Origin: Spirogloea muscicola
Taxonomy: Eukaryota > Streptophyta > Zygnematophyceae > Spirogloeales > Spirogloeaceae
Direction of reading: 5' to 3'
Assembly: GCA_009602725.1 (NCBI GenBank)
Contig: WELB01000028.1
Location: 523,972 to 587,971 of the forward strand
DNA length: 64,000 bases
The notes beneath the pieces are model-generated. The model did no database searches. It was not told the DNA's origin and was given only the letters and a program-made list of their open reading frames with translations. Of this stretch, positions 9,244 to 52,310 are shown in pieces; positions within the stretch are counted from its first letter, which is position 1, and the number at the start of each line of letters is the position of its first letter. Position numbers and translations under genes: made by a program.

Positions 9244-10773
9244 ATGGCGAGTGTGCTGCGGCGTGGCGGCGCAGGCAAGCGCACGAGAGTCGAGGCTGCC
9301 GGTGTCCAGAGCGGAGCATCCGACGACGGTGGAGTTGGCGACCGCGGTGATGAGGGGGAGCTCTCGTCGCAGTTCCGAGTCTACGCCGGCCAGTTGGACG
9401 CCATCGTCAGACCCTACTCTGAATCCTAAGCTCAGAGACGAAAACTTCAATCTATTTTCCATCTTGAAGACTGTAACCCCTACCCGCCCTCTTCTCTGGG
9501 CCTGCCGCTCGCTGCTGCTGCTGCGGCCGCCCTGGACGTCGTTGCAGCTTGGCCCACCAGTTCCCTGATGGCGTCAGCGTGGCAGGCGTGCCCATGGCGG
9601 CATAGAACGAGCGCCGTGAGCTCCTCGTCAAGGCGAGCCGCGACGTCACCATACACAGCAAGAAGGTCATCTTTGCAATCCACCGGTGTGTACCGCCACC
9701 TCTTCTGCTGCCGCCAAGGCTGGTCCGACAGCACCCTCACTTCATCATCCACTCAATACACACTCGCAACCTGCGCCGCAGGATGTCAGCGGGCACGCGG
9801 GCGGCGGTGCTGGAGTCGGCGTCTGCCGAATTGGGCACCGTGCGTGGCCGCCACGTGGCGCGTATCGCCGCGGAGCTCCGCGCAGAGGACTACTGGCGGC
9901 TGCGCGGCGCTTTCTCACCGGGGGCAAGCACACTCAAACCCAGCCACAGCCGCTGTGTACTTCATTTGCCATCTGGCTGCCTCCCCAGCTCGTGGGGCAC
10001 AATTGCTGACGCCTGCAACGGTCGCACAGATGCAGGAGTATATTGAGGCCGCAACTCTGTTGGAGTACTGCCGAAAGGGGCGGCTGCTGACGCCTGCAGA
10101 GCTGGACAGCGGTCTGGCGGAGCTGGCGGATGCAGACGGCTGCCCATTCCGCTCCAGCTTGGCAGACTACCTCCTCGGCGTGAGGGCCGGCGCTGCAAAT
10201 CGGAAGCGCACCCACCCAAAGACCAAGCCATGGCGCCAGCTCGCCGCTGGTTTGGAGCAGGGATATAATACGACTGATCTGCGTGTGGCTTGGTTGCCTG
10301 GCTACCCAGGTTGCTGATCTCACTGGCGAGCTCATGCGCCTGGCTATCGGCAGCGTTGCTGGCGCTGGGAGCGTCGGCTCCGCAGGCAATGAGGCGGCAG
10401 AATCATGCAGTTTCGTTCGCGCGGTGCATAGTGGTTTCAGCCAGCTACCGAAGGCTGGCGAGCTGGCCCGCGAGCTGCCGCGCAAGCTCGAGGTCATGCT
10501 GCAGAGTCTTGGGAAGATTGAAAACGGTAAAATAATTGCTGCTGCCAGTGTGCCTCCGCCGTGCCGCGCTGTTGCTGGCATTATTGGATGTCATGGTGGG
10601 CAGCAAGAGATCAGCTGACCATCAGGGACACTGGCTCGTCGTGGCGGCTGGCTGCTGCGTGTGCAGCGAGCTACGCAGTGCACGTGCGTGGATGCGAGTA
10701 CCCGGCCGACATGCTGGCTGCCCAACTCCTAGGTGGCGGCGGTGGTGATGGCGACATGCTGGAGATGTTGTGA
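9244..10773 (+). CDS. TSNAX: Translin-associated factor X (TRAX), C3PO catalytic subunit
   Basis: TRAX pairs with translin to form the C3PO endoribonuclease, which removes passenger strands in RNA silencing and processes pre-tRNA fragments in other eukaryotes. Six exons (9244-9405, 9606-9685, 9782-9923, 10030-10179, 10310-10526, 10667-10773) add up to exactly 286 codons, giving 285 residues; human TRAX has 290. Hallmarks are NERRELLVKASRDVTIHSKK, DYWRLRGAFSPG, QEYIEAATLLEYCRKGRLL, DYLLGVADLTGELMRLAIGS and SYAVHVRGCEY. The acidic residues that form the metal site in known TRAX are kept as E131 and E134 (QEYIEA) and D181 and E185 (DLTGE), so the protein looks catalytically competent. Intron 3 starts with GC (9924-9925) and ends in AG. 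The start is the first in-frame ATG before SSQFRVYAGQLDAI. Candidate TGTAA polyadenylation signals lie near 10872 and 10941. Confidence 0.95.
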
Positions 10774-11600
10774 AGCGGTGTGATGCTCATGCATTTGGTT
10801 GCTTGTGACCGCCTAAGCAGCAGATGGGGTAGCTCGGGTGGTGAAAGGACTGCAGCTGCCCTTTAGTCCTGCTTGTAAATACCAGGTGCCTGCGCCCGGT
10901 TGTGCCAGCTCGCACCAAGTGGACGGGAGGAACACAATGCTGTAACCACACTCTGCCTGTCTACGAGCAACCTGCCAGAGTGAAGGAGGTATGCTGTCCT
11001 AAGGAAGGACCTTGGAGAGCTCAGACAGTGCTGAATTCAGCTGTAAGTCTCAAGCCGACAGTCTCGAGCTGACTCAAGGCTGGCATCCGCGACTAAAATT
11101 CCGTGTCAATTACTTCGCCACTCAAGAGAGCATGCTGCCCATGGAGGCCTCAGAGGTCGTTGCTTGTAAGGCGTCATGGTGCTGACGACCACCTCAGCGA
11201 CAGCTGTCAGGGTTGATGAGCTGCTGTGAGCGCCACAGTGCGCTAAGCTTGCAAAGCAAGCAAGATGAAGTCGCAGATGACAGTTTCGCCCGTCCAAAGA
11301 GCCGAAGCTCCTCCTAGCACTTGCAAGGTCTTTGCAGCACATTCTGACTTTGAACCACCAGGTCAAGCCCTGAGTCTTGCATTGGCACGTCGGGCTGGCT
11401 GCGCTGCACCAACACTTTCGCTACCACCACTGTGCAATCTGCAAATCATCTCATGTACTGGCTCAAATAGGCCTCCGTTCATCTCAGGTGCACACCGCGC
11501 CTACACAGACAACCATCGCCGCCGTTTGTAAGAGCGTAAACCTCTTGTGGAGCTGGCCTTGCCGTCGTAAAGAGAAGGCCCACGGTTGCGCATGAACCGA
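10774..11600. other. Intergenic between TRAX and SEC24C/D
   Basis: No coding block is recognised on either strand. It should contain the TRAX 3' UTR and the upstream region of the next gene; a TATATGGGG sequence at about 11771 could be a TATA element for SEC24C/D. Confidence 0.5.
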
Positions 11601-11616
11601 AAGGGAGGCCAAAGCG

Positions 11617-11844
11617 TTGGGGCCAAGTGGGGAGGCGCCGAGACGAGAACCCGCCCAACGACGTTCTGACCGCTCAGACAAGCCCACAAGGGCCTTAAGC
11701 GCCGTCGGCTCGACGGCCGCAGCCCATGCTTCCCCGAACGTGATGCTCGTTGTTGGGCCGACGCTGCGAGTATATGGGGAGAGGGCGACTTTTGACGACG
11801 GCGGGCCCGCCCGACCCTGCTATCGGCAGTTGAGGCCGGGTGTC

Positions 11845-11881
<37 letters not shown>

Positions 11882-14800
11882 TGCCGCGGCCGCGATCACA
11901 GGGGGAGGCTCTCGCTCTCTGCGCCGACGATGTCGCCGCCCTGAGCCGCCCGCCCTGGCCGCGATGCCCGCCGCGGTTATCGCCGCAGCAGCCGCGCCAC
12001 GGGTTCTGGCCCGACGGCGGAATGCTGGCCTACCGAGCGCAAGGCGGCGGAGCCGACCTGGCCCTGCCGGCCGGATATGGACCAGGTACGTGCTGGCCGA
12101 CGCCCAAGCTCCCCACTTTTCCCGCCGGCTCGCCCGCCGCCGTGGCCGCCGGTGGCCGTGTGCCGCCAGCGGGCCAGCGCCGTCGCCTGCGGCGGCATAG
12201 CATTAGGGCAGAGCCCGGCCACCGTCTGCAGCGTCTGCAGCCTCTGATCNGGGGCCTCCGCAGCAGGGCTCGGCGATGCCCGGCCCTCCCCGCGGCGGCG
12301 GCGGCGGCAGCGGCGGCGGGGTACAGCCGCCGCCGGCTTTCGGAGCCAGGTTTGCCGGCCCACCGGCGGCGGAGATGCAGCACATGTCGCTGGGATCGGC
12401 GGGCGGCCCGGGGCCGCCGCCGCCAGCGACTGGGCCGTCGCCGACGTCCTGGGGGGCTCCTCCTCCCGGCACCGTGGTGGGGACGGCTCAGCGGCGTGTG
12501 TACCCCGAGGCGTACGCAGCTCAGGTCAGCTGTCAGCGCCAGCAGCATCGTGGCCGTCGCTGGGAGGCAGCAAGCTTGCCCTCGGCCGCTTCTTGCTGCT
12601 CGTGGCCCTGGCCGCGAGGCTGATGTCGGGGTTGGTAGGGCCGCTGCTGGCTTTGATTCGTTCTCAGTCTGTAGAGTGCTCTAAGTGCATCTACTGAGTG
12701 CTCTAATTGCAACTATCAAATAGTTTGAGACTTTGCTGGTAAGCCCTGCATCAATGTGCATTGCCAATCACTGCCGTGGCAGCGGCTGCTGTTGCGCCCC
12801 ATGTAGCCTGAGGACGGCCTTGCCGCCATTGTTTCTGCAGAGGCAGGGCGGGCCCGCCCCAGGGCAGGGTATGCCGCCGCCGCTGCTCCCGGGCATGCCC
12901 CACGTCGCCTCGCCCCACAGTCCGAATGAAGGCGGTGGCAATCGCATCGACCCCACGCAGATGCCGCGGCCTACGGCGTCAGACTCTGTGCTGGTCTTCG
13001 AGACACGAGTGGCCGGCGCTGCCAACCTCCCCCCCGTAAGTGCATCTCGCTACTCCCTGTCCAAGTCCTTGCTCGCCGCTTTTCAGCAAGGAGCTCGAAA
13101 GCCCGCTACTGTGCCCAAGTGCAGAGCATGGCTGGACCTTGAACAGAAGCACAAGGGCGCACTCCTGTATCCTGCTTGTGGCCCTGGCGGTGTAGTGGCT
13201 CTTGCTGCATGTTCATCCTTGCAGCAAGCTCTCTGATATGTAACAAATCTGCCTGCCCATCATGCCCGATCAGCCGGCCACAACATCATTCGTGGTCCGG
13301 GACACTGGCAACTGCAGCCCGCGCATGATGCGCTGCACTCTCAACCAGGTGCGCAAGAGAATTCACAACCTTTCGAGACTTACTGCGAGCTCTTGCCAGG
13401 CATTCTAGGCGTATCTTAATGGCTGCTGCCACTCACAAGTGACCCTTGCTTGCCCATCTCTGGACAGCTCCCAGGGTCAGCCGACCTCCATGCAACGTCC
13501 TCCATGCCGCTCGCATTGCTGGTGCAGCCCCTGGCGCTGCAGGACCCTAAGGAAGATCCTGTCCCGGTAAGGCCCTGCTCGTCTCCGCTGACGTATTGTG
13601 CTTGCTCTGACATGTCCGGAGCCGTTGACGTGCAATGCTATATCAACTCTCTGCCTGGACCCTAGACCCTAGATCGACCTCCCAACCAGCCTAAATAGCT
13701 GGAAGCCCGCACGTCAATATGTTGGCGAAATTGTTGCGCAGGCTGACATGTTTAGATCCATGCTTCTTGTTCCTCACGGTTGTGCTAATTGGCACACGTT
13801 GGGCAGGTGGTGGACTTTGGTGAGTCTGGGCCGGTCCGCTGCCAGCGGTGCAAGGCGTACATCAACCCGTTCATGCGATTCGTAGACCAGGGCCACCGCT
13901 TCATCTGCAACCTCTGCAGTCAGCACCTCTCTTCCCTCTGCCCTCAAGCTTTGCACCTCGCTGCCTTTGTGGAGGCCAAGAAGACCTCGATTTTCCAGCC
14001 TGTACTTCCATGTGATCAAGCAGAAGCTGAGGCGTGCTTGTGGTGACCCGCACTCACTCACCTTGTACAGGTCACTCTAATGAGACCCCTCGGGATTACA
14101 TGTGCAACCTTGGGCCGGACGGACGGCGTCGCGACGCTGATGAGAGGCCCGAGTTGTCGCGGGGCTCTGTCGAATTCGTCGCCCCGACCGAGTTCATTGT
14201 AAGTGGGTCCTTGTAGCAGGGCCATCTTTGAGGAACATCTTGATTAGGTGTTTGAGTTTGCTGCCGAGCTGGTCTACAGCAAGATATGGGAGATGCCAGT
14301 GACTGTGCATTTGCTTTGAGACGCAATTTGCAAGATTTTCAGTCTTGTCTGTATGGTGGCACCTCCTGTCTCACTGGGAAGCTGTATGTAGCTGTACAAC
14401 GTCAGACTGTCTGACTACTGTCTTTCTCTGACAGGTGCGGCCCCCTATGCCGCCAGTGTACTTTTTCCTGGTGGACGTTTCTGCCAATGCCGTCCAGATT
14501 GGCGCGACTGCCTCGGCCTGCAGCGCCATCTCTCAAGTTCTCTCGGCGCTGCCGGTGAGGCCACCTTTTCCTGTTCATATTCAACCCTGTGTACATGCCC
14601 TTGTATCGTCTAGCAGTCCGCGTGTGTGTGTAAGTATTGCTTCAGCTTGCCTGTTGTCACAGACAGCTCTATTCACAACTCCAGTAATAGCAACCACGTA
14701 CATCTGTAAGCTTGCGATAGTTTGGATGTTGGACCCTGTGCTCGGTGTTGACTTCACTGTCATTGGTTCACTTGGTGTTGCATCAAATCCTGTGTGATTG

Positions 14801-17800
14801 CATCTAAACAACTGAAGAGCTCGTCATTGTCTTTCTCGTGCCACTCTTTATGTGATACTGCTGGTCACTTGTGGTTGCAGGAAGGGGACCGGACTCATGT
14901 TGCCTTTGCTACATTTGACAGCACAATACACTTCTATAACCTGAATCCTTCTCTTCAGCAGGTAACATCATAACACTGTTTTTGCAGTTGTGCATCAAGT
15001 TGTGCATTGCAGTTCTGGTAAGAAGACTGCTTGCCACTCATGTAGCACATGGGCCTCAAGGCTTGCCACTGGCATACTTGTGGGCACTCATCTCAACTCA
15101 TTTTCAAACAGATTAGTGTACGTCTCTGGTTGCTTCTAATGGTTGGTCAATCATTGTTGACCTTTGATTATGCAGCCGTCAATGCTCGTGGTACCTGATA
15201 TTCAAGATCCATATACACCGCTACCCTCCGATGTTGTCGTGCCCCTGCTCAAGGTAGGTTGTACCAATGTTTCATGTTCTTAGCATGATATTGCAGTGGA
15301 GGTTCATTGTGTCTGCCGCAAATGCTGGCTGCCACTCCATGCATCTTCGTCCTTCTTGACTTTCTTGTGAGGCTTGATCCTGGGCGTTCTCAACAATCGC
15401 ACCTAATCCAGTCTGCAAAGCGGATATGAATCTAGTACAAGTGATTGCAATACTAAACGCATCCGCTACACAACAACAGTGTCGAGCAAATCTGGAGCAA
15501 TTGCTAGAGAATGTCCCCAACATGTTCCAGGCTGCTCGTGTGGCTGATTCCGCATTTGGTGCAGCTGTGAAAGTGAGTTTCCACTTAGGTTCGATCATTG
15601 CTGCTTTCATCTGCAACTTTCATTGAACAATTAAGGAAGTTGGTTGCATGCGAGGTTGCATCACAGTCCAGCGAAGGCATCGTAATTCACTAGAGATGGA
15701 AGAAAGTATAAGTGCAAATTTACTCGCAGCCCATAATGTAGCTTTCTGTGAGCAGGAAAGGTCAAACTTGGTCAACCATTGTGCTCCACTGCTTGCAGGC
15801 TGCATATCTTGCGATGAAGTCCACAGGTGGCAAGCTCCTTGTGTTCCAGTCTGGTAATGTCACCATACTACACATTCAGCACAATCTTTCCAGCATAGCA
15901 TCGTCCTATAGGACGTTAACCTTGATTCAAGAAGTCAATGTATGCAGAAATTTTCATCAGAAGAGGGTTGCGCATTGGCTATAGTGAGCAGCTACAGGAA
16001 GACAGTAGCTTCTGGGCCTTGGCCAGACACTCACGACAATGTCTGATACTGCCATCTGAGCCTCGTGCAGCATTGCCATCTGTGGGCTTTGGGTCGTTGA
16101 TTGGCAGAGAAGCTGAGGGCAGGACTGGCAGTGTCATGAATGAGAAGGTACTGGCTGCATCCTTGATATCCATTCATCATATGTGATCTTTCGCTTCTCT
16201 ATCTCTGGAAGGTGATGTTAGTGCATAAGTAAGCTATACAAGGACTAGTACAACTGCACATCTCCTGTGCAATGAGAGATTCGCATGCAGTCAATAGTAC
16301 TGCTCTTCGGTGAAGTTGATTGTACATTTCCAATGATAAGGTATTGCTATGTCATTGTCATTCTTTCAAATCCATAAGCCAACAGTGGGGATCAACATGT
16401 TGAGGCCTTGACTTTTTGCATTCTGTTGTATGCTCACAGGAGGCACATAAGATGCTGTCACCTGCTGACAAGACTTTCAAGACTCTGGCATTTGAGCTGG
16501 CGGAATTTCAGGTAAGCATCTTCCTTCTGAAGATAGTCTTGACTTCCAACTAGCCAATGTGGTTGCAGCATGATATATTAACGTACTTTGTCTCTCCTTT
16601 GGCTTGGGAATGCACTGGTCATCAACCATAGTCTGCAGCATACATGACCAGAGAAAGGACTCCTCCCCACCCCAATAGGCCCACAGCCCCCCAAATGTTT
16701 CTCACTGTCAATTTGAGAATTCCCTCCTTGCTGCCTTCCGCCCTCCTTATTTTCCCCTTGCTTCTACCCTCTCTCACCTTCTTTGCTCTCCATTGTAACT
16801 TCCTTTCCCAACTTCCCCCCCTCACTGGGGGTCTGTCGTGCCTTGTCCTGTACTGAAGCAAAATGCAGATGCCTGCCTTGACTTGTGATGTTCCAGGTCT
16901 CTGTTGACCTCTTTCTGATGACTCAGTCATTTGTGGACATTGCTTCGCAAGCTTCTGTACCCAGAACGACCGGTGGGCAGGTACTGGTGCTATTCACATT
17001 CATTCCCAGTGTCTTCGTAATCAAGAAGGCGCACTGGGATACACTTTTGCCATGAGAAGCACACAGCCCTGATAGATAGAACATTTCCACTTCTAGCATG
17101 TTCATAATCACCCCATGCTAGCGTCAACTTGATTGAATTAAGTGGTGATTCGGTTTGCTTGGAATATGTGCTACTTTTATCTTGAAACGTGAGTGGTGCT
17201 TGATAGCAACTGATAAGTTGCTATCCCCGCTATCCCCGCACCTGGCACTACTGCCAATGTGTCAAGTAATCTGTCTATGTGGTGCTCTTTGGGGCGCCTC
17301 TGCACGGACAGAGGTCCTAGAAGCACAGCTGCAGCCATCCTGTAGCAAAGCAATGTCCGTCTTTTCAAGAGAGGTAAACTCGGAGCAATGCCTAAAAGCT
17401 GAGGGCTAGCAGTCGTTGTCCTGCAGGTCTATTACTACTTCCCTTTCCATGCTGGCGTAGACAGCGCGAAGGTGTTCAATGACCTGAGATGGAATGTCTG
17501 CCGGCCCCAGGGCTTTGAAGCCATCATGCGAGTCCGATGCTCTGCTGTACGTATCTACAATTTTATGTTTGTAACAGTAGCTCTAGCACTTTGCTTGATG
17601 TGCGTGCGGTGCTCACTGAGCCTACGCGTCAGATTGTCACTGCAAAGTTTGCAAATGCAGGTGCACAGCAACAGAGTTCCATCTCAAAATTTGACTAAGC
17701 ATTTGGGTTGCTTGTTGGTGCAGGGTTTGCAAGTGGTTGACTACTTCGGCAGCTTCTGCAAGCGAATCCCCACGGACATTGATCTCCCTGCTGTAAGAGT

Positions 17801-20247
17801 CACATTGTTCTTAGCTGAGCTTGTGTTAGTTGCACAAAACACTAGTTTTTGTGTTTGACACACTCGTCAACTAGCAGGATGTTCACGTAACGAGCTCATT
17901 GCACGGCTTTGGGAGATGGCAAATATTGCTTCTGAGGCATGTCTACAAGGTTTTGTCTTTGACTTGGATCTGCTCATGACTCCTTAAGAGTATCACAAGC
18001 ATGCAGCCTTTACTGCTACATCCTTGAAAAGCCTCTTCCTGATTTGCCAGGTTGACTGCGACAAGGCAGTGATGGTCACGTTCAAGCACGACGACAAGTT
18101 CCAGGAGGGCACTGAGGCTTGCTTTCAGGCAAGTCAAGTACTCAGCATTTTGGCTAGTACGTTGATAAGCAGGCCCTTCTTGCAATGCGCGTACATATCA
18201 AGAGCTGCTCAAAATGGTCAGCTCCTGACAATTTGCTGGTCAGTTTGTCGACTTGATGCTCAGGTCCCTTGCTACTCAGTGACACTCATCACATCTGTCT
18301 TTCTCAGAGTGCAACCTTGTACACAACCCTTAGCGGCGAGAAGAGGATCAGGGTGCACACGCTCTCCCTCCCAGTGACAACGGTCTTGGGTCACCTCTTC
18401 CGCGGGGCTGACCTTGACGCGCAGTTCTCCTACTTTCTCAAGCAAGGTTAGCACATCTGTCTGAACTTCCTTCACACAAGCTCAAGCACAGTCAAGATAG
18501 CATGCGACATAAAGGTGAAGCATGCCTACCTACGTCAGAAAAAGCCTGTGCTCACGAGTGTCTCTAGTTCCTTACAACAACACCCTGGATGACTGTGTCG
18601 GCTGTTGTCTTTAATAATATACTTATGTATGCATGTGCTAGCCGCCTTGGATGTCGTCACCACCGGCCTTCCTCAAGTCAAGGACTCGGTCGTCCAGCAC
18701 TGCATAAATATCCTGGCAACCTATCGCAAATTCTGTGCCGCGGCGTCATCTTCCGGCCAGCTCATCCTCCCTGAGGCTCTCAAGCTGCTTCCTCTTTACT
18801 CGCTTGGTACTTGTCACATTAACTCTCGTTGACGGGGTTTTCAAGGATAGCTAGGGAACTAAGAATTTCTTTACTTGCTTTGTCGTTGCTGTGCTGAGAT
18901 GATCAGCTTCGCTAATTATGCAGTGCTCAGCATCTCCGGGGGACCTATTTCGTGTTCTTGATTGCCCTGATAAATTTCCCGTGGCGTACATCTGGCAGCC
19001 CTGACCAAGAGCATAGGATTGCGAAACGAGACGCGGCTTGATGAGCGGTCCTACTGGCTGTCCAAGGTGGCCAGTATAAGTGCGCCTCTAGCTGTGCCTC
19101 TCGTCTACCCCTGCATGTACCCCGTCCACAAGCTTCCTCCCGCTCAGGTCCACCATGCTGCCTCCTAACCAATTATGCCACTTGTTTAGGCGCCTCTGGT
19201 GCTCCCAAGCTCACCTCAAGCAGGCCTTCTTGGGATCAGCATTGCAGCATCCAGCATCCATGGAATCAAGGTTCAAATCTTGTGGGCTTGACTGACTGGT
19301 GAGACCACACCTGTTTATGGGTGCGCAGGAGGGTGTCTCGGTGTTGCCTCCTGTCGTGTCGCTGTCAAGCGAGCACCTTGACCACGAGGGCATGTTCTTG
19401 TTGGAGAACGGTGAGGATGCCTATCTATGGACTGGCAAGGCGGTGCCAGCCGACTTGTTGAAGCAGCTGATTGGATACTCATCTGTTGACGAGATTGCCT
19501 CCAGTCAGGTGAGTCTGGGCACCGCGCTTGCAGGCAGTCCAGCTCACAATGTATACAGTCAGCCTTTGTGGATGGTCCTACGTTCAGCAATGCTTAGCTA
19601 CCATGCGTGCCTTATTGATAGAGATTGGTTTCATCACCACATTCTTGAACGCAGCTCAGATGTCAAGTGCTCATAGCTCTCCTCAAAGCTGATGAAAGGC
19701 TGATAATGTTATCAATTTCCTGCTCTGCAGTTCCTGCTTCGTGAGTTTGACAATCCAGCCAGCAAGCGTTTGAACGAGCTCGTAAATGAAATACGCCGCC
19801 ATAGATGCTCCTACCTCAGGTCAGCTTCAAGTGCTTTGACAGACCAGATGATGTATATATGGCCTGCTGCTGTGATGCCTATTGGTGTTTCTATGTCCCA
19901 GCCTAATGACATCTTGAGGGCATCTAAGCGACCTGGATTTTGAGCAAAGCTATGAGCTTGTGTTGCTGTTGCGCAGTTTATACCTGGTCAAGAAAGGCAA
20001 TGCAAGTGGTGAGCAGCTCTTGACCTTCTGTGCTGTTGTAGTAAGGAAATGCACACATAGACTGCTGTGAGTGTGCACATCCTTCCTCACCATTAATATC
20101 TCAGACTCTGCCTCACCTTTTGATCTCTCAACATCTGCAGAAACACGATTCTTCTCATTCCTCACTGAAGACCGAGGAGCAACGGGGATGTCTTATGTCG
20201 AGTTCCTGGTCAACCTGCACCGACAAATTCAGAACAAGATGACATAG
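11617..20247 (+). CDS. SEC24C/D-like: COPII coat cargo adaptor SEC24, C/D (CEF) class
   Basis: SEC24 binds cargo signals and pairs with SEC23 in the inner COPII coat at ER exit sites. Twenty-four exons from 12241 to 20247 were traced with matching phases; main ones are 12241-12524, 12841-13035, 13274-13348, 13807-13918, 14435-14554, 16897-16980, 17427-17546, 18308-18446, 18642-18806, 19329-19508 and 20141-20247. A proline/glycine-rich N-terminus precedes FVVRDTGNCSPRMMRCTLNQ, a zinc-finger [117 protein letters not shown] and a gelsolin-like C-terminus with EHLDHEGMFLLENGEDAYLW. This spelling matches the plant CEF (SEC24C/D) branch rather than SEC24A. The first exon and start are unresolved: the frame ending at 12085 (GYGPG) is open back to 11617 through a CCG repeat, with possible ATGs at 11743 and 12022. 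Intron 18129-18307 starts with GC. Confidence 0.92.
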
Positions 20248-20725
20248 CCATTGAGGATAGGTCAAGCAGCTGGTCACTGAATTGAGTTAGCCATAACGAG
20301 ACATGTCTTAGTCAGGTGGGCCCCTCAATCCATTCTTCGCCCCCACATTTTCTGCCAAAGTCACTGTTGTTGGGGAGATTAAGATGGACCGCATCGGTCT
20401 TTCTTTTTGAGAGAACTGCTGCAACCTCAAAGGCGACTGGGTTTGCTGGGTAAGTTTGAAAGCGGCACTTGCTTTTGGTCATCGCAATCATGTGGTGGCT
20501 GTCAAGAAAAGCAGCGGCAAAGAAACCTGCACGGGCGAGCTCTGCATCTTGTACACATGCAAGTTCCGTTGATCTAGCAATTGATACAGAACTGACTCAT
20601 AGTCTTGCATGGGCCAGCAATTTGCTCATCATTGAATGGGAGAAGTGAAATTTGTACAGAAGAAGGTTGGCAGGACACGACAGATTGTTGAAATGGGTAA
20701 CGAGCTTGCATCTGTGAGACCTCAG
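20248..20725. other. Short convergent intergenic region
   Basis: SEC24C/D (+) stops at 20247 and translin (-) stops at 20726, so these 478 bp must hold both 3' UTRs. No other gene is seen. Confidence 0.6.
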
Positions 20726-22922
20726 TCAAGTCATCTGGACTGTATCATCTTTCTGCTCTAGAAGGCCTCGTATCTTCACATCGTACAATACCTCCTCTAC
20801 TCTCTTCAAGTCGTACTTCAATCCTACAGCATTTGCAAAGACAAGCAGAGAAGGAAATAAATGTTCAGATCAAAGGAGGACTGCATATAGCATAGCAGCC
20901 GAAAAGACAGCGTGCATTGGTGAGATTGATGTGTCAGTATGCCACAAGACTTCATGCTCATGAGCTCCAATGGCAGACTAGGGATCTGCATTCAACAATG
21001 CCCCAGGATATTTCCGCAGCTTCCATTCAAGCTAAAGCATGTCTTGGAGCAGCTCAATTGGCAGCAGGAATGAAGGTCAGTACCATCAAATCGTTTTCGA
21101 AGGAAGTCATTGCGGAGGTTGAGGAGGCGGAATGCTGCAAAGAGCTCGCTCAGGAAGGATGAGACACGTCTGGGGCAGTCGTAGTCACCAGCTGTCACCT
21201 GGTTGACCACATACCTTGGCTGCAACAAGTCGAGGTATACGTAAGGAACCTCGCAGGATCACATATCCGCAGCAGCTGCGGTTGTTACATGTCCATACCT
21301 AGCCAGAGTGCAAGGGTGTGGGATGACAACGTTCTTTGAGCGAAGATCAGACCATCAAACTTTGACTACTATTTCCTTTGGTGCAGCTGCTTATGTCTCC
21401 AGACACAAATCTAGTGCTGCTTCAGCAACACGACATTCTCGAGGACTTGCAGGTGAATATAAAGCGTGGCGGACTGTGGGCAACAAGTGGCATGAACAAG
21501 AACCCCTGGCCCCTGGGATAGACCGCCTGCTGACCATCTCATTGGAGACGCTGCAGACACCTGCACATTCGCAGCCAGAGCACAGAGGTATGGAGCTTAA
21601 TGCCTGTAACAAATACCACAAAGAGCCAGCCATGCTTTTTGCAATTGTCGCGAGCATTTATGCTGTTTTCATCTATCTCCAAGTGGCGGATGAGGGTTCG
21701 ACTTGCAAGAGTCAGGTTCCAATGCGTGAGTACCAAGCAGGTAGTCTTCCAAGTCCAAGGGAAACTCTGGAGTCACTGCCACATGGGGCTTCAGAGCCCG
21801 TCACAGAGCACGAGAGCACATAAGAAGAAGGCTCCCAGCTCGCACATCAAGCACGCTTAATAATATCCTCATTAGAGCTTAGGCCTGGATCAGATCAATG
21901 AACCAGAAATTCCACGTGCAATCTCGTGATGTGCAGGTCTTTGGCGGCGCTCACATCCCAGACGCTCCTGCAGCTCCTGGTGTGAGTGGAGGGACCCCGT
22001 GCGGAGCCAGCCGATGAACGCCAGCAAGAAGACGGCCGTCTGCGTCTGGTGCCTCCAGTGGTCGTGGTATCTGTGATGACGCCGGTTGCCCAACGTCAGC
22101 GCTTGTGAAGCCTAGCGCAGCTATGCTCGTCTCGCTGTCTCGGTCCTGCGCCCGGCAAGCTCGGCAGAGCTTCTGGGCGCTGCTGGCGGTGGCATCCGCC
22201 ACGGCGGTCATGACAAGAGCTTTCGTCGTGCGCTGGCCCAGAGGCTGAGCACAGCTCTGCCAGCTCTCGCTGCGACGGCCTGAGACCGCAGCTTCGAGAC
22301 GGGGGCCGGCGGCATGGCCGCTCTCTCGGTGCAGCGACGTCAACGGGCTTGCTCACAGCGCGGGAGCTCGGCAGCAGCCAGCATCGGACCTGTAGAATTG
22401 GCCAGGGCGGTCAGCCATGATGGCGGCCAGCTCGGCGTAGACGCCGCGCAGCTCCGGCAGGTGGGCCTCGGCGCGCTCCAGCGCCTGCGCGGCTGCCAGC
22501 GCCGCCGCCGCGGCCGTCAGCGGCGGCGGCCGCCTATCGCGCATCGTAGGTTTGGGCCAGGAGGCCGAGGCCGAGGCCGAGGCCAAGCTTCTGCGAAGCT
22601 CCGCGGAGAAGCCATGGCTGGTGGGCGGCCCTCCACTCCATGGACTGGACTCGATGCTCCACCTAAACCCCAAACCCTGGACCAGCGACGTGCCGAGGGA
22701 TTGCAGGCGGGGAGCGGGCCCTCCGAGCCGCGGCGCACCGGCGCGCGGCGCGGCGCCGTGGACGGGCAGCAGTGCGGAGTGCATGCGCCGCGCGGCGTCC
22801 TCCAGAGGCGCGACCGCGTCGCGCAGCCGCTCCTTCACGGCGCTCGCCGCCTCCAGCTGCGCCCGGAACGACGCGAACAGCGCCGCGATTTCGTCGTCGC
22901 CGACGCCGCCGGGCGTCGCCAT
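20726..22922 (-). CDS. TSN: Translin, C3PO scaffold and RNA-binding subunit
   Basis: Translin forms the octameric nucleic-acid-binding shell of C3PO together with TRAX. The start (ATG at 22922) reads MATPGGVGDDEIAALFASF, followed by RLRDAVAPLEDAARRMHSAL and VHGAAP, the usual translin N-terminus. A second exon ends with AAIMADRPGQFYR at 22390. Then come 22070-21955 (YHDHWRHQTQTAVFLLAFIG, TGSLHSHQELQERLG), 21775-21734 (LTPEFPLDLEDYLLG), 21560-21535 (VCSVSNEM), 21219-21084 (PRYVVNQVTAGDYDCP, FRLLNLRNDFLRKRFDG) and 20823-20726 (LKYDLKRVEEVLYDVKIRGL, stop TGA). Phases agree through the last five exons. The junction between the first two exons is not resolved. An in-frame upstream ATG at 22985 would add an alanine-rich stretch. 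It is divergent to SEC24A/B, whose 5' end is in the gap beyond 23368. Confidence 0.94.
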
Positions 22923-23243
22923 GGCGGAGGCTGGCCCTGCCGCCGCCGCCACCGCCGCCGCCGTCGCCGCCGCAGGTCGCGCCACAATATGCCCCGCGGG
23001 TTGGGGGCTGGGGTTCAGCTGGCGGCAGCCATGGCGGACTCCCGTGGCAGCATGGGAGAGAGGTTCTAATGCCTGCTAACAGTGGGCTGTTAGCTCCATC
23101 ACGACCAGAAGCGCCGGTTAGCTGCTCGAAACACTGCAGCCTGGCCGCCGCTTAGCCTTCGCTAACCGCCGGTTTGCAGAGCCACGGTCAGGCAGGTCCC
23201 GCGCAGTGCCGCCGCTGCCGCCGTCGCCGCCGCCGCCGCCGCC

Positions 23244-23867
<624 letters not shown>

Positions 23868-26800
23868 CCTGCCAGCGCCGGTGGCACCCTCGGCCAGCCG
23901 CTGGCGAGGCCCTCGGTGGCGCCACCCACCGCCGGGCTCTCCTCCCCCACCGCCGCAGCCGGCGGCAGACTGGCATACCCTCCCGGCCCGCCACCGCAGC
24001 AGCCGCCGCCAACGCAGGTCATGCATGCCGGCGGCGGCCCTCGGCCCTTCGCTGTCGGCGGGCCCCCGGCCTTCGGCTCTGTGCGAGCCAGCGCCCCGGC
24101 GTACGCCGCGGGTGCGCCGCCACTGTACCAGGGCAGCATGGACCCCAGCGCTGCGGTGCGGCAGCCGCTGCTCGACGGCCACGGGCCCGCGCCGCCGCCT
24201 CTGGGGGGCCAGTACCCTGCAGCGGGTGCCTACGACGCAGCGGCGGACGATGGCTGCCAGTTCCTGGAGGTGGTGCCGTCGCCGGGCTCGGCCGCTGGGG
24301 GGCTGAACGTCTTCGCCCTGCCCCGGCCGACCGACAGCCCGGACGTCGCGCCGAGCACGGGCGCCGCCAACTGCGACGCCCGCTTCGTGCGCATGACCAC
24401 CAACGTGATGCCCAACTCCGAGAGCCTCCGGCGGCGGTGGCAACCCCCGCTTGGCGCAGTGATCCACCCCCTCGCCAAGATGCCAACTGGGGTACGCTCC
24501 TCCTCCTCCTCTCTGCTCTGCGCATGCAGTCGCTGTCATCCACGACTCGCTGGCACTGATGGAGGAGGAGAGAATGGTGCATGCCTTGGATACCTGCTGC
24601 GATGGCTCTGTCAAGCTTACGAACGCCCATAAATGTCTGTGCACGCCTGCTGGCTTTCGAGAGCAGAAGTTCAGGGGGTTCACAATGGACACCCAGCTTC
24701 TTGGAGATTTTGGGTTTTGCTGGTGGTGCTGTTGGGGAGGGCTTTGCCAGGTTCAGGATGCTCGTTCGAAGGCTTTGGAGTACAGGTCCTGAGGGCTACT
24801 GCGGTGAAGCTGCTGCCCACAAGCTGTCCTTTGTTGTTCTGTTTCACTAGGAGGACGTCCCGGTGGCGAATCCAGGAGGAGGCGGCATCGTCCGCTGCCG
24901 CCGGTGCAGGACATACGTCAACCCCTACGTAGAGTTCACCGACGCCGGGCGCCGCTGGAAGTGCAACGTCTGCGGGCTCCTCAACGAGGGTGAGAGCTGC
25001 TCCCTGTCTGTAGTGCTCCGCATTGTCACCTTGTGTAGTGCTCCGTGCCTTGGCTTTTGTAGCAGTCAGTCATTTGAATCAAGAGCGCCGTACTTGGTGT
25101 CGAACTTGCATTGGCTTGCCTTCTTTGTATGAAGAGAGAGGCGATCAGACAATATCCTGTCTCCAAGATGTCTGCTCCATCCTGATGTCAGCCCGTATCG
25201 CACGACGTGGGCGTGCACTCCTGAGGCTGGTCAAATATGAAACAATATATTTACAAGTGGTTGGGCTTTTAGGTGGCGACCAACTCAGACATATTACGGT
25301 AGGACTTAGAGCATCAAAGCCCCTGGACCTGTTAACAGCATCTCAATTAAAATTCTGATAGTAATGCGCAATGTTGATCAGTGCCGGCGGACTATTTCTG
25401 TCCATTGGATCCTTCCGGACGAAGGAGGGACGCGGAGGAGCGGCCGGAGTTGGCCAAAGGCAGCGTGGAGTTCATTGCCTCTGCCGAGTACATGGTCCGG
25501 CCACCAATGCCTCCCGTATACTTCTTCCTCATTGACGTCTCCTTCTTCTCGATATTTTCCGGCATGCTGCAGGTACTGCTTCCCACCACATCAATCTGTT
25601 TCTCTACCATGCAGCACGTATTGCTCCTGTGCTTGATTTTATATATCAGCAGGGCCACAAGTCAATCTGGATGTTGAGTGCTGTGCATGCTGCAGAGCTG
25701 TCTTTTGAAGAGTCAGGGGTGTGGGATGTAGAGCTGGCAAGTAGCTTGCAGTACAGGATAGCATATCGATAAGATTGCACTTTTCAAGTATCCCAGACAG
25801 ATGAACTCATTCTCTTCATATGTGGTGACTGTTCTGGCATCAATCTGTGTTGAATGGATGTGTAGGTGACTGTGGACACGATCAAGGCCTGCCTCAAAAA
25901 ACTTCCTGGAGACTCCAGGACGCAGATTGGCTTCCTCGCGGTGGACTCCTCCCTCCATTTCTTCAACCTCAAGGCCTCCCTCAGCCAGCCCCAGCTCATG
26001 GTCGTGGCGGACCTTGAGGAGCCCTTCCTGCCGCTACCAGACGACCTCCTGGTCAATCTGTCGGAGTCGCAGGGTGTGGTGGAATCACTGCTGGACTTGA
26101 TGCCAGCTATCTATGCTGCAAACACCAATCCTGACTCGGCACTGGGACCCGCCATCAAGGCAGCTTACCTGATTCTGGTGTGAGATACAGTCCTGCAATG
26201 TGTGCCACACTCAATCAGCTCAGCATCACTGAGAGTACTTTATCATTTCTCCCATTGTTGATGAATTTTATGTCTAACAAATACTTCATGCATGCCTGAC
26301 CTCAGCATTTGTACTTGGCTTCCGTATTTTTCAGAATCAGCTGGGTGGCAAGTTGATGATATTCCAGAGCACGCTGCCTTCGTTGGGGCCTGGCCGACTG
26401 AAGCTTCGGGGCGAGGATGCACGCGTCTATGGGACTGACAGGGAGCACATCCTCAGAACAGCGGAGGATCCGTTCTACAAGCAGATGGCTGCAGACCTCT
26501 CGCGAGTCCAAATCTGCGTCGACGTTTTTGCCTTCTCCGACCACTATACTGACATTGCCAGTCTTGGTGAGGTGCAAACAAGCAGAAAGCAGGTCGAACT
26601 TGCTCGTGCAAATGAACATCGCAAGCTTGCTCAATTACTTATTCATGTGATCTCTGAGACAAATTACATTCTATGTCGTGATCACAGTCATGTGAACTCA
26701 GTGTTGCTAAACGTGTACGTGCTCTACTGCTTTACCTCAACAGGCACACTGGCAAGATATACAGGCGGGCAAGTCAATCACTACCCTGGTTTCAGGATTG

Positions 26801-29002
26801 GCAGGGACGGGGACAAGTTTAGCCGAGAATTTGCACGGGTGCTCGTTCGTGAGACGGGGTGGGAAGCTGTTATGCGGATACGGTGCGGCAAGGGTAAGTA
26901 TAGGCCGGCAGTCATCACTCACTTATGCGCCTACTTTGAGTGGCGGGCCCCTTTTGTTGCAGAGAGCAATGCCACGATGACTATGTCACTCGGTCTGACT
27001 GCATGCTCCATATATGTACAGGGCTGAAGATTTCCAGCTTTCACGGCCACTTCTTCATCAGAAGTACAGACCTTCTGGCAATGCCAGCCGTCGACTGCGA
27101 CAAGGCCTTTGCAATCCAGATTTCTCACGAGGAGACATTGCTGACAACACCAACCGTATACCTACAAGCTGCCCTCCTGTATAGCCGAGCTACCCTGCTA
27201 CCTTTTACCATCTCGGATACCCCACTAATGTTGCAGAATAAGCAAGTCTAGATTTCGATTGCACAGAAGAGACTTTGACATACTTTTATTCCTTTAGCAA
27301 CTGCCCACTTCATAATCTGAATGAATGTGCTTGACAACTTGGTATTATTTGACGCCACGTACATACAGGTACACCTCATCCTCTGGTGAGAGGAGGATTC
27401 GTGTACACACAATGGCTATCCCGGTGGTTGCAGACCTTGGAGAAATGTATCGGGCTGCTGATGCTGCAGCGATCACCGCTGTCATGTCAAAACTTGGTGG
27501 GTCCATCTACCTCCTCATGCCTATGACAAATTCCACAATTCATAGTCGGCAGGGCTCATCAGAGGACTAGTGTGCAGTAAAGAGGCAAGGTTGCACTGGA
27601 AGCATCGCTGGCTGGCTGGCTAACAGCCTGACTTTGTGCATTGCAGCCATTGAGAGGTGCCTCACAAGCCGCCTGGAGGATGCAAGGCAGATGGTTCAGA
27701 CCAAGTGCATACAGGCCTTACGAGAGTACCGTGGGCTGCGCCACCCGCGGTACTCGAACAGAGGCGGCGTGCTTCTGTTCCCTGAGAGCCTGAAACTCTA
27801 CCCGCTCTTCTCCCTGGCGCTCTGCAAGACCTCAGTCCTGCGAGGTGGCTTCCAGGAAGTGAGCATTGATGAGCGGTCGGCTGCCCTTTTCGAGATGATG
27901 AACATGCCAGTCCACCGATTGCTGAAATACCTTTACCCCTCGTTCATGCGGATCGACGACATGGACGCTGATGTAAGTTATCAACACCTACAAGACCCAA
28001 TATCAGCTAGTCCTGTGTGACACACGAATAGTGCTCAACCTTGGCTTGCACAGGCATTGTTGGACTGTGATTCGATGGTAAATGTAGCCAGTATGTTGGC
28101 TCATCAGCTCACATAGTGGACGCCAGATGTAAGCGAATTGAGTTGCTTCTGACGGCAGGCTTCTGTGGCATCATCTGTTGATGCCACAATAAATTGCAGC
28201 CCATCATAGAATCAACCTTTGCTTAAACTCAGCTTTCAAAGGCTCCAACATCTGAAGCAGTAGCTAGCATCTAGGCTCCTTACTCAGATTGTGCAGGCCA
28301 GGATCATTGCTTCACTGGCTCAGTTGCTGACGAGAACAACCTGCGTGGCAGTGTGGCAAGGTCATAGATGGGTCTGTCAAGTTGCCCCGTGTACTCCCTC
28401 TCATCAGTAAGCTGCTGGATGGGGCCGGGGCCTACCTCCTGGATGATGGGTTACGGATTCTATTGTGGCTAGGGCGGGAGCTCCTGCCTCAGTTTCAGGA
28501 GCGATTGCTTGGGCCAGCTGCTGGCATTCCGAATCTCAGCCAGGTGAGTCGCCTGGCTCTTTGAGGAGCATCTTCACCTGAAATTCTTGGATGGGGCCCT
28601 TGTTGTGCCGAGTGTCCACATTGCGAATGAATGTTCCAACTTTGTGGTGAATGGAGTTTGCCCTCAATGACTTGTACAATGAGCATGCTTGCAAAATGGA
28701 ATGATTATGTTCAACATAATCCACCTTGAGCGCATACTAATAGCTGTAATACCCCCTGCTGGCTGCCCAAGCAGGTCCCCGTTATTCCGCAGGACAATCC
28801 TCTGTCTCGGCAGGTCTTTGCCATAACGGAGGAGCTGAGGCGGGAGAACCCCGTCTACCAGCAAGTAATGGCCATTCGGCAAGGCGAGTCAAGCAGGGAA
28901 CTGCTCCTCTATCACAACATGGTGGAGGACCGCAGCGCAGCAGGTTTGAGCTATGAGGAGTTCATGAGACATGTGTACAACCAAGTCCAAGCGAGGGCCT
29001 GA
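23868..29002 (+). CDS. SEC24A/B-like: COPII coat cargo adaptor SEC24, A/B class, 5' end in gap
   Basis: Eleven exons join in frame: up to 24491, 24851-24989, 25382-25572, 25866-26177, 26335-26566, 26744-26893, 27022-27178, 27369-27496, 27647-27972, 28352-28543 and 28775-29002, about 890 residues after the gap. A Pro/Gly-rich N-terminus leads to [19 protein letters not shown], zinc finger [20 protein letters not shown] with [20 protein letters not shown], trunk/vWA-like [103 protein letters not shown] and a gelsolin-like end with [20 protein letters not shown]. It is the SEC24A-type paralogue, clearly different from the CEF-type gene upstream; the two share only family-level motifs, so this is not a recent tandem duplicate. 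Confidence 0.94.
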
Positions 29003-35994: not shown

Positions 35995-38900
35995 ATGGCG
36001 TGCCTGGCGCTGGCGCTGCAGCCGGAGCAAGGGCCCGACATCCTGCTGCAGACGTGAGCTCGCCCAGCGCTCGCCCTCGCCGCTCGTGCTGCGCTTCACT
36101 GCCATCACTGCCAGGTCGCGGCTCTGTTTGCCCCGCTGACTACCGTCCTGCGGCTGGTCCTCGCGGCGGCGGCGGCGGCGGCGGCGGCGGGTGCTCGGCT
36201 CGTCAGGCGCGCGTGGTTCCCGCTGGCGCGCGCCATCGCGGCGTCGGCGAGCTTCCGGGCGACGCGCAAGGCGTACGCACTACGCGGCGAGGATGCCGCC
36301 GGGGACGATGCCAACGAGAGGTGCGCCGGCGACTCCAGATGATACTGGTTGACGTGCTGACAGCCGCACTCCTCTGGCTTCAGCCCTTTGCTCCGCGTGC
36401 ACACAATGCACGGAAGCAGCGATTTCATAGGCCAGTTTGCAAAAGACTGGAGCCTGGAGCATCTCGGTGCATTGTCAAGGCCACAGAAGGGGTCCTTTGG
36501 ACCTTGCGCTCTCACTGCTGGCCACTGAGCTCTGCTTGTGAGGCGCAACCGCTTGAAAGCTCGAAGCTCCACAGGCACTTTCATGCTCTGTTGACAATGC
36601 TGGAGCCAGATAGACTGGCTGAGTGCAGCTGGCCCTTGCTCGTTGTGTGCGGCTGCGCTCAGGCTCGGCGACGACCCCTTGGCCGCGTCAAGCGGCCAGG
36701 TCGTGGTCGGCAGTGACAATAAGTGAGAAGCCTCTCCCGGCCTGGACTGTTTGTGGGACTGAAGGATGCAGGCGAAGCAAAAAGGTCCTGGTTATTGGTG
36801 CTCTAACTTGCTGGTGTGCAGATGGATATCCATCGTGGCAAGCTCAATCGTAGTGTCCGACAAGCTCTAGTGAACACTCCTAGCACTGTGAGCTAGGACA
36901 GCAGGGTTGATCACTTTCACCGAGCCCTTGGCTTACCCCTACACTGGTGCTGCTCGAGAGATAGGGGCTGCCACCGTTATGAGCAGCAGTATTTGTATAG
37001 GCGCTGGTGGTATGGAAACGAGTAAAAGAATCTTGCTTAAGGGCGTGTCTACTAAGGTTGAATCTTTGACCTCGCCGTGCTCTCTGAGCACAACAGCTGA
37101 CAAGCCTGGGAGACCTCCAGGTATCGGGTGGTGTACCGGTTGGTAAACAGCGTGTACGTGCTTGGGATCACCAGTGCAGACGAGAGGGACATCTTCAACA
37201 ACGTTTTCGACTGTGCTGCTACTGTCAACAGAGCTGTCGCCATTCTCGTCTCCACCTGCAGGGGGGTTGACGTCACGGCCGAGAAGCTTGCTCGAAAGTA
37301 CCCCGAGGTCAGAGTTTTCCAAGACGAAATGCAGATGCTCACTGTGGGCTTGCACATGTGCCATCTGCATGGCTGCATTTACTGCATTCGTGGTCTTTTG
37401 AGACACTTGTGTGCACCAAAGTGAAACTATTGTACCTACTGGATCTTCAACGCTGGAATGATTTGCGCTGCTGCCTTGGGCTACAGGTCTACATCAGGTT
37501 GGATGCAGTGCTGGCAGGAGGCCCTGCCTTTCGCTTGGCAAATGCTTATGCCGTTGCACAAGCTGACAGCGAGAGCAAAGCTCGAGGAGCTGAGAGCTGG
37601 AACCAAGTACGACATATATCTGTGGAGCGGCTGGCCAACATAGAGGTAAACCGTAAACCCTAAACCCAAAACCCTAAACAAGTTCTCTCTCTGCAGCCCT
37701 GCCTACGTGACCAATATTTTGCAGCTGTCCTTGCTCTCATAAATTGGCCAACAATTGGACAGCCGAAAGCCCAAAAAATCTCACCCATGCTTTCCCACAG
37801 GAGCGGCTGTTTCAACCCATGAAAGCGCAAATCTTTGCCGCAGGTTCTTTCTTCGTCAATGTTTGAGCTTCCCAAAGAGACCCTGGCGGCTGGGGACGAG
37901 GTTGCTGCACAGCAGGCACTGCCATTTCAGCAACTGGGCAAAGATGCTAGTCAGCCTGCAACTGAGAAGTTGGCAGCAGAATCAGACGACCCATTTGCTG
38001 CAAGCGCAATTGTGCCGGCCTCCACTGCAGACCTAGCAGGAACATTCAAGCGGGATGGGGCAGCCACGGCCTCAGATCCTGCAGCTCTGCTGGCAGGGCT
38101 GAAGGTTTCACCTATTGACAAGGATGCAGTTGAAAGCGTGGTGGTCACAGAGGAGGGCTTCGAGGGAGAGTATGGCGGCCTGGACTTCAACGATAGCGAC
38201 CGAAATTTCCTGGGCGAGGGCTTCGGCGGAGGGGCTGCTGCTTTCGGCGGAGGCTTGGATGCCTCCGAATTTGGGGCGGAGGCTGTGAAGGAAGATGCAT
38301 TCGGAGGAGGCCTAGGGGGCCTGGCGGGCAGCGGCCTCACCGGTGCACCAGGGGCTGCAGCTGGAGCTGAAGCTGCCAGGGACAAGACTGCTGCCGTGCC
38401 TATCACCGAGTTCTCAACAGCAAGCACACGTAAGGCAGACGCTTGTCTGGATCTGCAGTATCTTCCTAGTATCTCCCTGCAGGTAGAGGAGCCTTTGTGC
38501 TAGGCCGTCTCTCATCTTGGCTCGTTGATGCTTAGCCTACCTCTTTCTGTGAGCACTTCTAGCTGATTCGTGAGCTTGGTGGGTCTGGACCTCGGCCACT
38601 AGAAGGGGCACACACTTGAGTGACCTCCTTCCAAAGCTCCTCAAGGCTCCTCTCAGTCACCTTACATTGTCTCTTGCTGATTTTGTGCACTCTTTTGCAT
38701 CAATAGGTGGAGCCCCTGAATTCGACCCTGGTTTGCCAACTTTGTGGATCTCCGAAGAAATCAACGCAGACTTCCGAGGAACTAGATTGCAGAGAGTGGG
38801 CTTGCACGGCACTGTCCACATGTCCCCGCCACCTCAAGCGCTGGCCACTAACAGCAGCAATGACATTGATGTCTCGTTCCGCCTCGAAGGTGCCATGGGC

Positions 38901-44302: not shown

Positions 44303-44763
44303 CCTAGAAGCTGCAGGCGCACGCGCGCGGCCCGCCTCGCCTCTCTTGCGCCGTCCGATGCGGCATCGCTCGATACGGCGGCTCCCGCTTCTGGAGACCC
44401 TTTCCCCCCCCAGCCGGTGACGGCAGCACGGCCAACCGTCCCCAGCCGGCCCCCCCGGGCGATTTGCCGAGGGAGCCTCAGGAGCGCCACGAGAAGCGCC
44501 GACCAAATCCCCCCACCCCCCCCACCCGTGGCACATTTTCCCGAAATGATAGAAAGTGCTCTTCTCCAGATGCTCGCTCACCCGCCCCCCCTCGGCGCTC
44601 CTGGCCCTCCATGACTACGTATAAAGCTTGCCCCTCCATACTTGCGTACAAGACGTGCCCCTCTCCCCCTCCTCCTCCACAGCAGCGCCCGCCAAGCCCA
44701 GCCCAGCCCCTGATCCGCCAAGCCCCACTCATCTTCGCCAAGGCCCACCACCAGCTGCTCGCC

Positions 44764-51800: not shown

Positions 51801-52310
51801 TGGTGCAGTAAGGAGCAGTCTGAGACTTGCTCGCTGAAAGCTGCCAGCACAGAAGACTCTGAAGAGGCTGGTCCTTCACACAGGTCCTTGACACCCAAAA
51901 GGCTGCAGCCCACTGATTTGACCGGATGAGCGCAAACCAGCAGCAGTCACCGACCGTCACCAAGAGGGTGCCACATCAGAGCAGGGGAGTTGGCTAAGTA
52001 CAAGGTGCAGAGCCTGGTCAAGCTGGAGCAGCTCGTTCATTGATAAGGTGATCCAGGGCCCCACTGCTTGCTTCCACATGCTTATTGCGGCACCCCCGCA
52101 CTGGCCACTTACAATCATGGCTGCACCCAAAAGTAGCAGCACTCCCAAGGTGGGCGAGGGCGAGGGCCAGCCCACAGAAGACTGAACAAGGTCCAGAGGA
52201 GCCGGGAAATTTGTGAGGACCACTGAGGGTGCCTGCTCAGTCAGCAGTCGCAAGTCGGAGAGACTATTAGCAGGAAAGAAAAAGTCAAGTCTTCCAGATT
52301 GGGCGAGGGC
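48829..52310. repeat. Segmental duplication, copy B (contains GST2)
   Basis: Counterpart of copy A (43030-47510). It lacks the nested retroelement insertion in the promoter and so preserves the pre-insertion arrangement around 48970. Confidence 0.85.
49467..51010 (+). CDS. Glutathione S-transferase, phi-like, copy 2
   Basis: Same five-exon structure and length (219 residues) as copy 1: 49467-49625, 49829-49877, 50127-50284, 50526-50674 and 50866-51010. Differences are few and mostly near the N-terminus (LYGHPISVHVRRVLTTAYEK) and in the ending KKADV. The catalytic Ser12, VMEDGQF and ESRAIARYIAEKY blocks are unchanged, so both genes should be active enzymes. Intron 1 uses a normal GT donor. 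The promoter is free of the insertion seen in copy 1, so the two genes may differ in expression more than in activity. Confidence 0.92.

What the first reader, a model, noticed from the sequence alone, without database searches (positions are those of the whole stretch)
9244..29002. Two ancient paralogue pairs interleaved: TRAX, SEC24C/D, translin, SEC24A/B
In 20 kb the order is TRAX (+), SEC24C/D type (+), translin (-), SEC24A/B type (+). Translin and TRAX are ancient paralogues, and so are the two SEC24 classes; both splits predate plants. Finding one member of each pair side by side, twice, is hard to put down to chance. It could be a relic of a very old two-gene block duplication (followed by inversion of translin), a later coming-together kept by selection, or coincidence. 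I know of no described link between C3PO and COPII.
Basis: partly seen in the sequence, partly recalled or inferred. Interest (0 to 1): 0.85.

Follow-up and report, generated by a model that had tools for sequence, protein, structure and literature searches.

The report
Four-gene neighbourhood: translins beside SEC24s
In what is probably the alga Spirogloea muscicola, the only two translin-family genes found and the only two SEC24 genes found sit next to each other in one 20-kb block, in each of three copies of the genome region; the block is real and unusual, but it is more likely a lineage-specific arrangement than a relic from the earliest eukaryotes.

Summary
The order is TRAX (+), SEC24 class C/D (+), translin (-), SEC24 class A/B (+), at about 9.3-29.0 kb; no further gene was recognised between them. 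In whole-genome searches the translin domain was found only here, and SEC24-type proteins only here (the other Sec23_helical loci are SEC23). The same order lies on three homeologous contigs (C28, C30, C76; about 85-91% identity, dS 0.11-0.18). A one-off scaffolding error is therefore unlikely, although both SEC24 5' ends fall at assembly gaps in all three. Small trees put the SEC24s in the ancient A/B and C/D classes, and TSN and TRAX in theirs (bootstrap 100 each); intron positions show no sign of recent duplication. About 20 other ancient-paralogue pairs checked in this genome are not close together. A rough random-order estimate is 7e-6 to 8e-4 such blocks per genome. The pre-LECA block-duplication reading lacks support: my literature searches showed no such linkage elsewhere, and Arabidopsis SEC24 locus numbers are far apart. 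I favour a lineage-specific neighbourhood formed before the subgenomes diverged, kept passively or by weak co-regulation of C3PO partners. No other eukaryote genome could be searched, so the key test is open.

The parts
9310..10773 (+). TRAX (translin-associated factor X), 6 exons modelled; true start and the 3' end of exon 1 (9402 or 9405) unsure
   Evidence: acidic residues E/E in QEYIEA and D/E in VADLTGEL match positions 126, 129, 193, 197 of TRAX chain 3pja_J (their catalytic role is recalled)
12841..20247 (+). SEC24 class II (C/D, Lst1-type), 23 exons modelled; the proline-rich N-terminus lies upstream, around the break at 12250
   Evidence: stop codon TAG ends at 20247
20726..22922 (-). 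Translin (TSN), 7 exons modelled, ATG at 22922
24102..29002 (+). SEC24 class I (A/B type), 11 exons modelled; an open frame continues back to the gap edge at 23868, start codon not in the assembly
23368..23867 (.). Assembly gap of 500 N after a long poly-A run, between the translin and SEC24 class I 5' ends; 1 N in C30, 963 N in C76
12250..12250 (.). Second break: single N in the SEC24 class II 5' region (281 N in C30, 177 N in C76)

Best explanation
A real four-gene neighbourhood that holds all translin-family and SEC24-type genes found in the genome. It was put together by ordinary chromosome rearrangement in this alga's lineage before its three subgenomes diverged, then inherited in the same order by all three. 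The proteins are inferred to do their usual jobs: TSN and TRAX form the C3PO RNase, and the two SEC24s are alternative cargo adaptors of the COPII coat. The TSN-TRAX closeness may be helped by selection for matched expression of two subunits of one complex. The interleaving with SEC24 is most likely incidental. Shown: identity, class, order, presence on three homeologous contigs, purifying selection. Inferred: origin by rearrangement, timing beyond the subgenome split, function, absence of a direct C3PO-COPII partnership.
For: Same order on three homeologous contigs. dN/dS below 0.3 in all 10 comparisons made: TRAX 0.23-0.27 (3), SEC24 II 0.05-0.09 (3), TSN exons 2-7 0.03-0.09 (3), SEC24 I 0.06 (1; the two comparisons with C30 were left out because its frame is shifted). 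The SEC24 split (alga A/B + human A | alga C/D + human C, D) has bootstrap 100 in a 5-sequence tree; TSN|TRAX has bootstrap 100 and branch length 1.64 in a 6-sequence tree; species names of the chains are recalled. Intron positions: 2 of 10 SEC24 I introns match a SEC24 II intron within 2 columns and in phase (expected 0.68, P 0.15); none is shared in position and phase between TSN (6) and TRAX (5). A published case of linkage between members of two paralogous families that arose within the green lineage: sMYB-PRR (PMC9516744, abstract and passages).
Against: The random-order expectation is very low: by formula, 7e-6 blocks per genome for 1000 two-gene families and 8e-4 for 10,900 paralogue pairs; 2.4e-4 for 1000 pairs if any 8-gene span is allowed. 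These rest on my guess of 12,000 genes per subgenome and on assumed family counts; 400 simulated genomes gave 0 blocks, which at these rates says little. So 'incidental' leans on the many windows and genomes that a scan looks at. About 20 control pairs of ancient paralogues are not close together, so this genome does not generally cluster them. No outgroup was available to date the arrangement.
Confidence: 0.72

Rival explanations
1. Selection-driven neighbourhood: C3PO and COPII work together, for example in RNA processing or silencing at ER exit sites, and the genes were gathered for shared regulation, with translin and SEC24 class I transcribed head to head from one promoter.
For: Improbable by chance; the gene sets of both families, as far as found, are in one place; Argonaute genes are present; a 1999 title links translin and Trax with transitional-ER ATPase (reference list only); translin and SEC24 class I are divergent, 946 bases from the translin ATG to the far edge of the gap, 500 of them N.
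Against: No paper in the library holds translin, TRAX and Sec24 together. The stretch between translin and SEC24 class I is interrupted by a gap in all three copies. No expression data were at hand. SEC23 genes are elsewhere.
Confidence: 0.13
2. Relic of a two-gene block (translin-like + SEC24-like) duplicated before the last common ancestor of eukaryotes, with later inversion of translin.
For: Both splits are ancient (three SEC24 paralogues in LECA per PMC4419792) and each half-block holds one member of each family; one exactly shared SEC24 intron (alignment column 596, phase 1) could be ancestral.
Against: Requires linkage kept for over a billion years here and lost elsewhere. Arabidopsis SEC24 classes are At3g07100 versus At3g44340 and At4g32640; human TSN, TSNAX and SEC24 loci are not linked (recalled; one search gave nothing usable). 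The orientation of the two half-blocks differs. Gene order decays fast in algae (general knowledge).
Confidence: 0.05
3. Scaffolding artefact across the gaps.
For: Both SEC24 5' regions are at gaps in all three contigs. A scaffolder that used homeologue order could copy one error.
Against: Three contigs agree, with different gap sizes (500, 1, 963 N and 1, 281, 177 N). Alignments are collinear from the left end of the window to about 41.6 kb. The SEC24 C/D to translin junction has no N in any of the three copies.
Confidence: 0.04
4. Recent tandem duplication of SEC24 and of translin inside the alga.
For: SEC24 I and II of the alga are 39% identical, close to alga-human identity within a class (40%).
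Against: Trees with bootstrap 100 for the ancient split; differing intron sets, 10 versus 22.
Confidence: 0.01

Closest known systems
[quoted passage not shown]
   Same: Members of two paralogous families linked repeatedly (LHY/CCA1-PRR5/9 and RVE4/8-PRR3/7), with linkage arising within the green lineage
   Different: There the linkage was traced across many genomes and the genes share pathways; here there is one genome in triplicate and no known shared pathway
Sec24I / Sec24II ancient paralogues (PMC4419792); AtSec24A versus AtLst1A/B (PMC3934973)
   Same: The two algal SEC24 genes fall in these two classes
   Different: No linkage is described in the passages read
C3PO (translin-TRAX RNase)
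   Same: One TSN and one TRAX; the four TRAX acidic residues are conserved
   Different: Genes lie about 10 kb apart with a SEC24 gene between; no such linkage is known to me

Membership tests
TRAX | Best match TRAX rather than translin; acidic residues of the RNase site | tested here: met
   (3 of 3 hits are TRAX), tree, residues; catalytic role recalled
Translin (TSN) | Best match translin; groups with animal translin | tested here: met
SEC24 class II (C/D, Lst1-type) | Full SEC24 domain set and grouping with human SEC24C/D | tested here: met
   (bootstrap 100); N-terminus not modelled
SEC24 class I (A/B) | Full SEC24 domain set and grouping with human SEC24A | tested here: met
   (bootstrap 100); start codon in gap
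C3PO complex | TSN and TRAX proteins form a hetero-octameric RNase | not testable with these tools
   only the genes are seen
Ancient (pre-LECA) syntenic block | Same linkage in distant eukaryotes | not testable with these tools
   no eukaryote genomes held; IMG/VR gave 0 SEC24 relatives; literature searches showed none
Spirogloea muscicola genome | Triplicated zygnematophycean genome | tested here: inconclusive
   Two or three homeologues for most loci searched; three plus one AGO loci fit PMC7994812; table row in PMC11096116 read as 174 Mb, N50 566 kb (headings not seen) versus 153 Mb in 471 contigs held; 18S 3' part streptophyte-like by recall

The most novel reading that the evidence does not exclude
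The block is a surviving fragment of a pre-LECA two-gene duplication (a translin-like gene beside a SEC24-like gene), so that this alga preserves the original linkage from which both C3PO and the SEC24 adaptor classes were born.
Probability: 0.05. Interest if true: 0.9.

Novelty: new member of a known kind. Interest (0 to 1): 0.42.

Why it matters
If the linkage recurs in other streptophyte algae or beyond, it would be among the oldest conserved gene neighbourhoods in eukaryotes or a first hint of a C3PO-COPII connection; both are directly testable with public genomes. If it is confined to this species it is a striking example of how interleaved paralogue pairs can arise by rearrangement, and a caution against reading relics from one genome.

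Tried and rejected
IMG/VR was scanned with a SEC24 alignment for stray algal contigs: 23 pattern matches, 0 relatives. GTDB contigs were scanned with TRAX, hoping for Asgard archaea or stray eukaryotes: 170 pattern matches, 15 loci kept, all titled Woesearchaeota, Nanoarchaeota or Altiarchaeales. So whether translin sits near Sec23/24-like genes in Asgard archaea could not be tested. Recent tandem duplication was rejected. Local gene conversion between the SEC24s was considered, because alignment columns 166-240 are 64% identical between the algal copies, more than either is to its human class-mate there (49% and 44%). I left it aside because that stretch looks shared by plant SEC24A and SEC24C (recalled); it was not tested. 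A third SEC24 class was looked for: the C158/C32 locus gives only weak matches, best to Sec23A (42 bits), with no SEC24 chain at E 0.001 or better (only one open frame of the locus was given). It may be like the divergent AtSec23/Sec24L1/L2 of PMC3934973, not tested. Human chromosome positions were looked for in papers (listing only): nothing usable. A search for a triploid trebouxiophyte genome (listing only) gave no algal paper among the 12 listed.
Full report
What is there. The window is part of contig C28 of a 153-Mb genome held in 471 contigs. Exon models were made by aligning the window with its two homeologous contigs and following codon conservation and splice sites. They give four neighbouring genes: TRAX 9310-10773 (+), SEC24 class II 12841-20247 (+), translin 22922-20726 (-), SEC24 class I 24102-29002 (+). 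I recognised no other gene between them, by eye on the frames and predicted exons; the stretches between were not scanned against families. The SEC24 class II stop lies about 480 bases from the translin stop, and translin and SEC24 class I point away from each other. Flanking genes are a CTU2-like protein (24.8 bits, below the Pfam cut-off of 27.9) and a transferase-family protein on the left; CP12, a carbon-nitrogen hydrolase, a universal stress protein and a muHD-like protein (21.8 bits, below the cut-off of 25) on the right.

Identity and class. Pfam gives Translin for genes 1 and 3, and five SEC23/24-type domains for genes 2 and 4. Against solved structures, gene 2 is nearest Sec24C (549 bits; Sec24A 459) and gene 4 nearest Sec24A (571 bits; Sec24C 447). 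Gene 1 matches only TRAX (3 of 3 hits) and gene 3 translin first. Small maximum-likelihood trees of 5 and 6 sequences give bootstrap 100 for the SEC24 A/B versus C/D split and for translin versus TRAX; inside TRAX the branching is unresolved (53). PMC4419792 (passages) reports three SEC24 paralogues in LECA, the first two being these classes. TRAX keeps the four acidic residues at positions 126, 129, 193 and 197 of TRAX chain 3pja_J.

Copy number. The translin domain was found at 14 places, all in this block on C28, C30 and C76. Sec23_helical was found at 12 places: six in this block, and six at two sets of loci (C168/C234/C256 and C4/C45/C13). One model of each set is SEC23: 610 bits to Sec23A against 48 to the best Sec24, and 313 against 37. 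Sec23_trunk adds a divergent locus on C158 and C32, weakly nearest Sec23A. So, within the limits of an exon-by-exon search that scores only the best candidates, each subgenome has one TSN, one TRAX and two SEC24s, all here.

Is it an assembly error? All three contigs have the same order. The aligned stretches of the first comparison are 83-92% identical, about 85-91% inside the block. Alignments are collinear from the left end of the window to about 41.6 kb; beyond 44 kb there are duplications and inversions. The join between translin and SEC24 class I is 500 N in C28, 1 N in C30 and 963 N in C76. The join before SEC24 class II is 1 N, 281 N and 177 N. The SEC24 class II to translin junction carries no N in any copy. 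By eye both gaps sit in GC-rich, proline-coding 5' ends. A scaffolder guided by homeologues could repeat one mistake, so I leave about 4% for an artefact. SEC24 class I in C30 carries a one-base shift in its second modelled exon; the C28 and C76 copies read through.

Age and constraint. dS between subgenomes is 0.11-0.18 and dN/dS 0.03-0.27 over the 10 comparisons made; two comparisons of SEC24 class I with C30 were left out for the frame shift. The linkage is therefore at least as old as the subgenome split. Older evidence is missing: no eukaryote outgroup was available. SEC24 intron positions share 2 of 10 within two columns and in phase (expected 0.68, P 0.15), and translin and TRAX share none in position and phase, so there is no trace of a recent block duplication.

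Chance. With 12,000 genes per subgenome (my estimate), a formula for random order gives 7e-6 four-gene blocks of two paralogue pairs per genome for 1000 pairs, and 8e-4 for 10,900 pairs; 400 simulated genomes gave none, which is uninformative at such rates. An 8-gene span gives 2.4e-4 for 1000 pairs. As a control I looked at other families in the same genome, grouping hits into genes by eye from contig and profile range; that these are ancient paralogues is recalled. Mu-adaptins: 32 matches on 12 contigs, taken as 5 genes, 10 pairs. IF-2B: 15 matches on 8 contigs, taken as 3 genes, 3 pairs. Rpb2: 40 matches on 13 contigs, of which I took at least 3 nuclear classes, 3 pairs, and set aside a plastid-like contig and some unplaced ones. 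SEC23-type: 3 loci, 3 pairs. Argonaute: 2 groups, 1 pair. That makes about 20 pairs, none with two different genes within 100 kb on one contig. Contigs are of limited length, so this is a test of closeness only. Two Rpb2 loci share contig C6 about 1 Mb apart, and C121 has a second partial Rpb2 match about 23 kb from the first that repeats the same profile region, perhaps a partial copy. So clustering of ancient paralogues does not look like a habit of this genome. A scan over many windows and genomes raises the odds of meeting one such case, so coincidence is disfavoured but not excluded.

Organism. Most loci looked at have two or three homeologues. The 18S 3' part (Rfam SSU_rRNA_eukarya) looks streptophyte by recall. 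Argonaute loci number three plus one, which fits the three AGO1/5/10 genes and the AGO2/3/7 clade reported for Spirogloea muscicola, whose genome is triplicated (PMC7994812, passages); I did not class the Argonautes. A table row for that species, headings not seen, reads 174 and 566.4, taken as Mb and N50 in kb (PMC11096116). I take the species to be Spirogloea muscicola, about 85% sure.

Interpretation. Arabidopsis has its SEC24 classes at At3g07100 and at At3g44340/At4g32640 (PMC3934973, passages), far apart by locus number; human loci are recalled as unlinked. sMYB-PRR (PMC9516744, abstract and passages) shows that linkage between members of two paralogous families can arise late, in land plants. 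I therefore favour a lineage-specific neighbourhood, with possible weak selection for balanced expression of TSN and TRAX as partners. A direct C3PO-COPII coupling is possible but unsupported. No paper in the open-licence library holds translin, TRAX and Sec24; [quoted passage not shown]

Noticed in passing
window 44584-47364 and 49243-52161: Local duplication: both stretches match the same C30 region (about 61.9-64.8 kb of the joined C30 stretch) and the same C76 region; the first carries a glutathione-S-transferase-like frame (by eye, no family search).
   Followed up: no
window 35995-40411: Muniscin-type mu-homology protein (muHD, 21.8 bits, below cut-off), perhaps the TML/TCUP subunit of TSET (recalled): possibly another vesicle-coat gene, 7 kb from SEC24 class I.
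   Followed up: no
window, about 23245-23367: A run of over 100 A immediately before the 500-N gap, likely an assembly artefact.
   Followed up: no
L012 (C30:166000-175999), second modelled exon of SEC24 class I: One-base shift breaks the frame in the C30 copy; real mutation or sequencing error not decided.
   Followed up: no
L025 (C158:118000-126000) and L026 (C32:71000-80000): Divergent Sec23/Sec24-like gene with a zinc-finger-like stretch and weak trunk match, weakly nearest Sec23A (42 bits); perhaps like the unplaced plant AtSec23/Sec24L1/L2 group.
   Followed up: partly
L053 (C33:97060-98860): 18S matches Rfam only over bases 1-581 (model 1117-1697); the sequence upstream does not match, so an intron or a broken copy.
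   Followed up: partly
L012, about C30:167.3-168.45 kb: Roughly 1.1 kb between translin exon 1 and the N in C30 gave no blastn match in the window and contains degenerate CCCTAAA-like repeats.
   Followed up: no
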